Shown here piece by piece: positions 1 to 385 of a DNA stretch of 64,000 nucleotides. The stretch is from Gemmatimonadota bacterium (GTDB lineage Bacteria > Gemmatimonadota > Gemmatimonadetes > Palauibacterales > Palauibacteraceae), in the NCBI GenBank assembly GCA_022820995.1, contig JAJEEM010000064.1, positions 1 through 64,000 on the forward strand. Direction: 5' to 3'. The notes beneath the pieces were generated by a model. That model worked only from the letters and a program-made list of their open reading frames with translations. It searched no databases and was not told the origin of the DNA. The position numbers and the translations under genes are program-made. Position 1 is the stretch's first letter, and each line of letters begins with the position of its first letter.

Positions 1-221
1 GCCGAGCTCGCGACCAGAGGTCGCTCGGTTCGAACCCACGAGGGCAGGCATCTTCGACCTGCCTCGTGGGAAACTGCTATAACGGACGGGGTGGGATTGG
101 CTTCCTCCCGCTACGCGGGACTCGCCGAGCTCGCGACCAGAGGTCGCTCGGTTCGAACCCACGAGGGCAGGCATCTTCGACCTGCCTCGTGGGAAACTGC
201 TATAACGGACGGGGTGGGATT
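1..221. repeat. Two perfect 98-nt direct repeats (1-98 and 124-221, period 123) ending with the 16-nt 3' end of the adjacent tRNA-Ser(GGA); contains a strong hairpin
   Basis: gccgagctcgcgaccagaggtcgctcggttcgaacccacgagggcaggcatcttcgacctgcctcgtgggaaactgctataacggacggggtgggatt occurs identically at 1 and 124; CCCACGAGG(g)CAGG...CCTGCCTCGTGGG stem. Confidence 0.95.
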
Positions 222-294
222 CGAACCCACGAGGCAGGGTTGCTGCCCACACGCTCTCCAGGCGTGCGCCTTAGTCCGCTCGGCCACCCGTCCG
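206..294 (-). tRNA. tRNA-Ser(GGA)
   Basis: Acceptor CGGACGG/CCGTCCG, GGTTCGAATCCC T-arm, long variable arm, anticodon loop CTGGAGA. Confidence 0.95.
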
Positions 295-327: not shown

Positions 328-343
328 CGGAGGGGGTGGGATT
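328..343 (-). repeat. 16-nt duplicate of tRNA-Ser(GCT) 3' end (AATCCCACCCCCTCCG), preceded by a variable-arm duplicate
   Basis: cggagggggtgggatt repeats the 3' end of the tRNA at 386; flanking ctcgagactctttcgag resembles its variable arm. Confidence 0.85.
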
Positions 344-385
344 GGCTCGAGACTCTTTCGAGCCGTCCACACCTTCCTTCCGAGG

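What the first reader, a model, noticed from the sequence alone, without database searches (positions are those of the whole stretch)
1..294. tRNA-Ser(GGA) followed by repeats that each end in the tRNA's own 3' terminus (rtT-like)
Downstream of the tRNA (minus strand) a 98-nt unit with a strong hairpin is repeated at 123-bp period and terminates in AATCCCACCCCGTCCG, the exact last 16 nt of the tRNA. The first unit may continue beyond the window edge. This resembles the E. coli tyrT locus, where ~178-bp repeats end in the tRNA 3' ~19 nt (rtT RNA). Such a transcript could be cut by tRNA 3'-end enzymes to release short hairpin RNAs or tRNA-like tails.
Basis: partly seen in the sequence, partly recalled or inferred. 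Interest (0 to 1): 0.72.

Follow-up and report, generated by a model that had tools for sequence, protein, structure and literature searches.

The report
Hairpin inserts in tRNA tail copies
In Gemmatimonadota bacteria, several tRNA genes (above all the serine ones) are followed by tandem partial copies of their own 3' half whose T loop is interrupted by a tiny two-hairpin element, apparently a small mobile-type repeat that lives almost only in tRNA T loops and that I could not find described.

Summary
The array runs off the contig edge and continues on another contig of the same genome as far as tRNA-Ser(CGA), which has its own units. The interpretation needs changing. Each unit is a partial copy of the local tRNA gene (variable arm/T stem to discriminator base) whose T loop carries a roughly 50-nt insert of two hairpins (GNA triloops, tandem G·A, compensatory changes), flanked by AA on both sides. 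In this genus homologous inserts follow tRNA-Ser (four isoacceptors), Ile, Met and Leu. Each copy ends in its own tRNA's tail. Of 56 inserts, 51 sit directly after a T loop, 4 beside another insert and 1 elsewhere. A full-length T-loop-interrupted tRNA-Ile gene and empty/filled sites occur. Other Gemmatimonadota families have the same layout with other insert sequences. The Rfam rtT model does not match, although its E. coli control does. Best reading: a REP/MITE-like palindromic element that colonises T loops of partially duplicated tRNA genes and multiplies by tandem duplication. A regulatory pre-tRNA trailer is not excluded: copied tails and antisense segments are predicted to capture the tRNA's 5' half. 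Mobility and transcription are inferred, not shown. A new variant of a known kind, moderately interesting.

The parts
206..293 (-). tRNA-Ser(GGA), GGACGGG...CCCGTCC plus discriminator G, no encoded CCA
   Evidence: ARAGORN and Rfam tRNA 55 bits
83..205 (-). unit 1, complete, 123 nt: linker, inverted copy of variable arm/T stem, T-stem 5' half, two-hairpin insert, tRNA tail copy
   Evidence: sequence; fold z = -2.6
181..193 (-). CCCACGAGGCAGG, 13 nt antisense to the tRNA's variable arm/T stem; can also pair with 152-172
   Evidence: 13 nt against a shuffle maximum of 11 in 300 shuffles
152..172 (-). copy of variable-arm 3' strand, T-stem 5' strand and TTCGAA
   Evidence: sequence; genus comparison
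99..151 (-). 53-nt insert in the T loop: hairpin 1 CCGAGCGACC(TCT)GGTCGCGAGCTCGG and hairpin 2 GGCGAGTCCCGC(GTA)GCGGGAGGAAGCC, flanked by AA on both sides
   Evidence: covariation across the genus; covariance-model hits
83..98 (-). AATCCCACCCCGTCCG, copy of the tRNA 3' end from T loop to discriminator base
   Evidence: identical to the tRNA's last 16 nt
1..82 (-). unit 2, cut by the contig edge inside its insert; array continues on G000:C6
386..471 (-). tRNA-Ser(GCT)
328..385 (-). degenerate unit after tRNA-Ser(GCT): variable-arm copy and tail copy AATCCCACCCCCTCCG, most of the insert lost; the spacer here is 92 nt against 34-38 nt at empty sites and 140-151 nt at fully filled sites

Best explanation
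The repeats are tandem partial duplications of a tRNA gene's 3' part, each carrying in its T loop a short palindromic element of two strand-specific hairpins. The element behaves like a tiny non-autonomous mobile repeat (MITE/REP-like) that enters tRNA T loops next to an AA, and is kept only where an intact tRNA copy survives upstream or downstream. Units then multiply and shrink by unequal recombination, which keeps tails similar to the local tRNA. Shown: the anatomy, AA...AA borders, sharing of the insert between tRNAs with local tails, empty and filled sites, an interrupted full-length tRNA copy, unit-number variation. Inferred: mobility, the T loop as target, co-transcription, the order duplication then insertion. 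The enzyme that moves it is unknown.
For: The same insert occurs after Ser(GGA, GCT, CGA, TGA), Ile(GAT), Met and Leu(TAA), each copy ending in its own tRNA tail. Of 56 inserts, 51 directly follow a T-loop GTTC(G/A)A(A), 4 lie next to another insert in the same array, 1 lies elsewhere, upstream of tRNA-Arg(CCG) in G005. Native T loops hold one AA; filled ones read AA-insert-AA, and two inserts can follow each other with the same border. Three genomes (G002, G008, G014) show an interrupted tRNA-Ile copy beside the intact gene; G002 was read in full and has the whole gene. G004 has a longer interrupted Leu fragment. At Ser(GCT) the spacer is 34-38 nt when empty and 140-151 nt when filled, with about 19 bp repeated. 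Insert similarity does not follow orthology: same tRNA in other species 0.822, same genome other tRNA 0.821, neither 0.798. Terminal units decay while inner ones are intact. Hairpins are kept through compensatory changes: GGC/GCC, GAC/GTC, GGG/CCC outer stems; 2 G-T in 224 pairs.
Against: No mobilising enzyme was found: Y1 (IS200/RAYT type) transposases are absent from 14 of 17 genomes of the genus, and palindromes of this kind do not flank the three that exist. The insert is hardly ever outside tRNA copies, unlike ordinary MITEs. All T-loop inserts point the same way although the target is nearly palindromic, which favours a sense-strand role or an asymmetric target. No autonomous, gene-carrying version was seen. 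The 2-bp duplication is too short to prove transposition.
Confidence: 0.55

Rival explanations
1. Regulatory pre-tRNA trailer. The units are co-transcribed with the tRNA; the copied tail offers a second partner for the tRNA's 5' acceptor strand, and an antisense segment pairs with the variable arm/T stem, so the trailer switches the precursor between a mature fold and a trapped fold, or feeds tRNA 3'-end enzymes.
For: In the predicted minimum-energy folds of both precursors tested the 5' acceptor strand pairs with the downstream tail copy, and in tRNA-Ile the antisense segment opens the tRNA. Antisense runs of 12-15 nt at Ser(GGA), Ile and Met exceed every one of 300 shuffles in most genomes tested; L163 does not. 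All T-loop inserts have the sense orientation, and GNA loops and G-A pairs are expected to be stable only on that strand. A promoter-like site lies upstream of tRNA-Gln and no terminator-like site lies on the tRNA strand between tRNAs and units.
Against: Unit number ranges from none to several between close species, and several species lack units. Ser(CGA), Leu and Ser(GCT) units show no antisense run. A duplicated tail gives a degenerate alternative fold by itself. Nearly no G-T pairs among the hairpin changes, unusual for RNA. No transcription data.
Confidence: 0.2
2. Scars or minimal satellites of site-specific integration. Tyrosine integrases use tRNA 3' ends; each unit is a displaced tRNA 3' fragment left by a very small integrated element.
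For: The copy always runs from the T loop to the last base of the tRNA (including CCA in L087 and L099 where it is encoded), the same region left as displaced fragment by integrative islands (PMC4383910). Islands lie at these tRNA-Ser genes in relatives, one with a phage-type tyrosine integrase. Filled sites show about 19-bp direct repeats.
Against: A displaced fragment would carry an intact T-arm core, not a T loop split by 50 nt. T-stem and variable-arm sequence is copied too. Units are 65-170 nt without genes. A full-length interrupted tRNA gene is not an integration product.
Confidence: 0.12
3. Plain tandem duplication (minisatellite). Slippage duplicated tRNA 3' ends and the freed T loops grew palindromes locally; nothing moves.
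For: Tandem arrays with decayed end units and variable number; the linker after the tRNA recurs in each unit.
Against: Homologous inserts at seven tRNA genes, and one insert outside a tRNA copy, are hard to explain by local growth.
Confidence: 0.08
4. T-loop intron: the insert is spliced from a precursor.
For: Precise position in the T loop and a full-length interrupted tRNA-Ile gene.
Against: Nearly all copies lack a tRNA 5' half, an intact gene is present beside the copies, and no bacterial splicing of such an insert is known to me.
Confidence: 0.02

Closest known systems
rtT repeats of the E. coli tyrT operon (Rfam RF00391)
   Same: Tandem repeats directly after a tRNA gene, each ending in the tRNA's own 3' end (E. 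coli layout from general knowledge)
   Different: Rfam model does not match; here the tail copy is half of a T arm split by a two-hairpin insert; many tRNAs; insert shared between tRNAs; another phylum
Small palindromic mobile repeats (MITEs, RPE, REP/BIME; PMC2229807, PMC12306157)
   Same: Under 200 bp, no gene, palindromic, short target duplication; RPE are known inside RNA genes (tmRNA, RNase P RNA; PMC2229807)
   Different: Nearly exclusive to tRNA T loops and always with a tRNA tail copy; no clear terminal inverted repeats or TA ends; no mobilising transposase found
Displaced tRNA 3' fragments of integrative islands (Islander, PMC4383910)
   Same: A 3' tRNA fragment in the same orientation downstream of an intact tRNA
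   Different: 65-170 nt units, no integrase, T loop interrupted; Islander discards candidates under 2 kb or without integrase, so it would not list these
3' external transcribed spacer of leuZ (sRNA sponge) of E. coli
   Same: A stable RNA from a tRNA trailer is a precedent for a function (from general knowledge; listed in PMC12306157)
   Different: No tRNA tail repeat; transcription untested here

Membership tests
rtT RNA (RF00391) | match to the Rfam covariance model | tested here: not met
   0 of 3 genomes of the genus; E. coli control rings; none in window or six loci
rtT RNA (RF00391) | tandem repeats after a tRNA, each ending in the tRNA's 3' end | tested here: met
rtT RNA (RF00391) | transcribed with the tRNA and released by processing | not testable with these tools
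   no RNA data; no terminator-like site on the tRNA strand between tRNA and units
REP/RAYT elements | resident Y1 (RAYT) transposase flanked by the palindromes | tested here: not met
   Y1 absent from 14 of 17 genomes; element motifs do not flank the 3 found
MITE / small palindromic mobile repeat | short non-coding palindromic repeat at several sites, with filled and empty sites | tested here: met
   seven tRNA loci plus one non-tRNA site; empty/filled Ser(GCT) spacers
MITE / small palindromic mobile repeat | target-site duplication and terminal inverted repeats | tested here: inconclusive
   AA on both sides with one AA in native T loops; two internal hairpins, no clear terminal inverted repeats
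Integrative island displaced tRNA fragment | integrase gene between tRNA and fragment, length above 2 kb | tested here: not met
   units of 65-170 nt, too short for an integrase gene; filters from PMC4383910
Any Rfam family | gathering-score match over the units | tested here: not met
   only tRNAs; nothing convincing at relaxed threshold, sX4 weak and mostly over the tRNA

The most novel reading that the evidence does not exclude
A dedicated element class that recognises the T arm of tRNA genes (as DNA hairpin or RNA), inserts only in its loop in one orientation, and copies the local tRNA 3' end in the process, or whose trailer RNA regulates the host tRNA by capturing its 5' acceptor strand.
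Probability: 0.25. Interest if true: 0.8.

Novelty: new variant of a known kind. Interest (0 to 1): 0.55.

Why it matters
tRNA T loops are among the most conserved sequences in biology. A small element that lives almost only there, in many tRNA genes across distinct families of a phylum, would be a new niche for mobile DNA, and island finders that filter out small intervals would not see it. If the trailers act on the tRNA, they would be a new way to control tRNA supply, with serine tRNAs the main target. Either way it gives a concrete, testable system for how tRNA-tail repeats, which I know mainly from one E. coli operon, arise.

Tried and rejected
(1) rtT homology: Rfam model negative with a working control. 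(2) RAYT/IS200: Y1 transposases absent or not linked. (3) IS91-type Y2: 0 of 17 genomes, but no control rang, so inconclusive. (4) Other Rfam families: nothing convincing. (5) Dispersed repeat in the genome: the exact hairpin-1 pattern occurs only at the Ser arrays; the Ile copy was found only by the tail survey. (6) Automatic consensus folding chose an invariant, uninformative stem; pairs were counted by script instead. (7) Locus-wise or genome-wise homogenisation of inserts: no signal either way. (8) Literature: the searches aimed at such elements returned nothing describing them; the library lacks most subscription journals. (9) The covariance model from this genus does not reach other genera, so homology of inserts between families is only suggested by a shared GCCGAG...G(G)TC border.

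Full report
WHAT IS THERE. The window starts inside a repeat array on the minus strand after tRNA-Ser(GGA). One complete 123-nt unit (205-83) and part of a second (82-1) are seen; the window edge is the edge of contig C54, and the array goes on at the start of contig C6 of the same genome. The order tRNA-Gln, Ser(GCT), Ser(GGA), Ser(CGA) is the same on single contigs of relatives (L038, L039, L041, L042), which supports the join. Titles of matching records place the genome in Gemmatimonadota.

ANATOMY. Each unit reads linker, (inverted copy of variable arm/T stem in some), T-stem 5' strand and TTCGAA, insert, AATCCC...discriminator. So it is a partial tRNA gene whose T loop is split by an insert of about 50 nt. 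The insert has two hairpins, CCGAGC(GA)CC-GNA-GG(GA)GC..GAGCTCGG and GGC(GA)..CCCGC-GNA-GCGGG..(GA)GCC. Across 22 distinct inserts of the genus, hairpin 2 has a GNA triloop in 21 and hairpin 1 in 17; stems change in a compensatory way (GGC/GCC, GAC/GTC, GGG/CCC; CCCGC/GCGGG, GCCGC/GCGGC), only 2 of 224 pairs are G-T, and a tandem G-A alternates with Watson-Crick pairs. From general knowledge such loops and mismatches are stable on this strand and not on its complement, so the selected form is probably a single strand of tRNA sense, RNA or DNA; my data do not decide which.

HOW FAR IT GOES IN THE GENUS. The same insert with the local tRNA's own tail follows Ser(GGA, GCT, CGA, TGA), Ile, Met (four tandem units in G005) and Leu(TAA). 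In a tally of 56 inserts, 51 directly follow a T-loop GTTC(G/A)A(A), 4 lie beside another insert and 1 lies outside a tRNA copy, upstream of tRNA-Arg(CCG). A covariance model of the insert finds nothing strong outside these places in 60 related genomes and does not reach other genera. Three genomes carry an interrupted tRNA-Ile copy beside the intact one; the copy in G002 was read in full and is a whole gene with part of its upstream region. Native T loops have one AA, filled ones AA-insert-AA, and two inserts can follow one another with the same border. Empty and filled Ser(GCT) spacers are 34-38 and 140-151 nt; in this window the unit there has decayed and the spacer is 92 nt.

HOW FAR IT GOES BEYOND THE GENUS. 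A scan of one genome for each of 85,462 species for a tRNA-Ser(GGA) tail repeated at 95-125 nt gave 14 records, nine of them Gemmatimonadota or Longimicrobiales (two from one genome), plus one Rickettsiales and one Proteobacteria record at CCA-encoding tRNA-Ser genes, and three not at tRNAs. In 395 genomes of the phylum, 10 match this strict pattern, in 7 genera, and none match the reversed control. A survey of 141 tRNAs in four genomes found tail copies at 16 (Ser, Ile, Pro, weak or decayed Arg and Met), 0 in reversed sequence. Inserts in other families differ in sequence but keep the layout: T-stem 5' strand, hairpins, last hairpin closing directly before ATCCC. Common descent of these inserts is possible but not tested.

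MECHANISM. Sharing of one insert between seven tRNA genes with local tails, the AA borders, an interrupted full gene and empty sites fit a small mobile palindromic element that lands in T loops and persists where an intact tRNA copy remains. Tandem growth and decay of end units fit unequal recombination. I found no mobilising enzyme, and all T-loop inserts point one way, which a plain MITE would not predict. A second reading is a regulatory trailer: the minimum-energy fold of both precursors tested pairs the 5' acceptor strand with the copied tail, and 12-15-nt antisense segments against the region from anticodon stem to T stem occur at Ser(GGA), Ile and Met, in most cases beyond 300 shuffles. 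Duplicated tails produce such folds by themselves, and species without units exist, so I rank it second. Integration scars are third: the copied region is the one that tRNA-targeting integrases displace (PMC4383910), and islands sit at these tRNAs in relatives, but a split T arm and an interrupted full gene do not fit.

COMPARISON WITH KNOWN SYSTEMS. It resembles rtT in layout but is not a member by model. It is closest in kind to small palindromic mobile repeats, which are known inside RNA genes (RPE in tmRNA and RNase P RNA, PMC2229807). The T-loop niche and the tail copies are, as far as the searchable literature goes, undescribed.

LIMITS. Most genomes are metagenome assemblies; arrays at contig ends are incomplete. 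There are no transcript data. Counts of inserts include tandem duplicates and are not independent events. The no-orthology result rests on short, GC-rich sequences and few same-genome pairs (14).

Noticed in passing
L045, L046, L047, L067, L070, L072: Genomic islands appear to lie directly at the 3' end of tRNA-Ser genes in relatives, with attachment repeats of about 11 nt (e.g. CACCCCCTCCG); L047 has a 388-aa phage-type tyrosine integrase. In the cases seen the islands sit between the tRNA and its first unit, not inside a unit tail.
   Followed up: partly
L155 (tRNA-Pro CGG), L089 (tRNA-Pro GGG): tRNA-Pro genes have short tandem units ending in their own tail; in L155 only a small hairpin CCCGGATCTATCATCCGGG is left in place of the T arm.
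   Followed up: no
L060, L061, L062, L064, L086: Other genera of the family have units after Ser(CGA/GCT/GGA) with a different insert (GGGATTCTCACCGGTGC...GGCGAATCCC), possibly the reverse orientation of a related element.
   Followed up: no
L087 (Rickettsiales), L099 (Proteobacteria): Single tail copies that include the encoded CCA follow tRNA-Ser in two unrelated lineages; may be island remnants.
   Followed up: no
L220:700-790: The only insert found outside a tRNA copy: CGAACAA-insert-AACAAAA, just upstream of tRNA-Arg(CCG) and before a hairpin, in G005.
   Followed up: partly
L038:1932-2040: Weak sub-threshold Rfam sX4 match (31.9 bits, cut-off 70) over tRNA-Ser(CGA) and the start of its first unit; probably tRNA similarity.
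   Followed up: no
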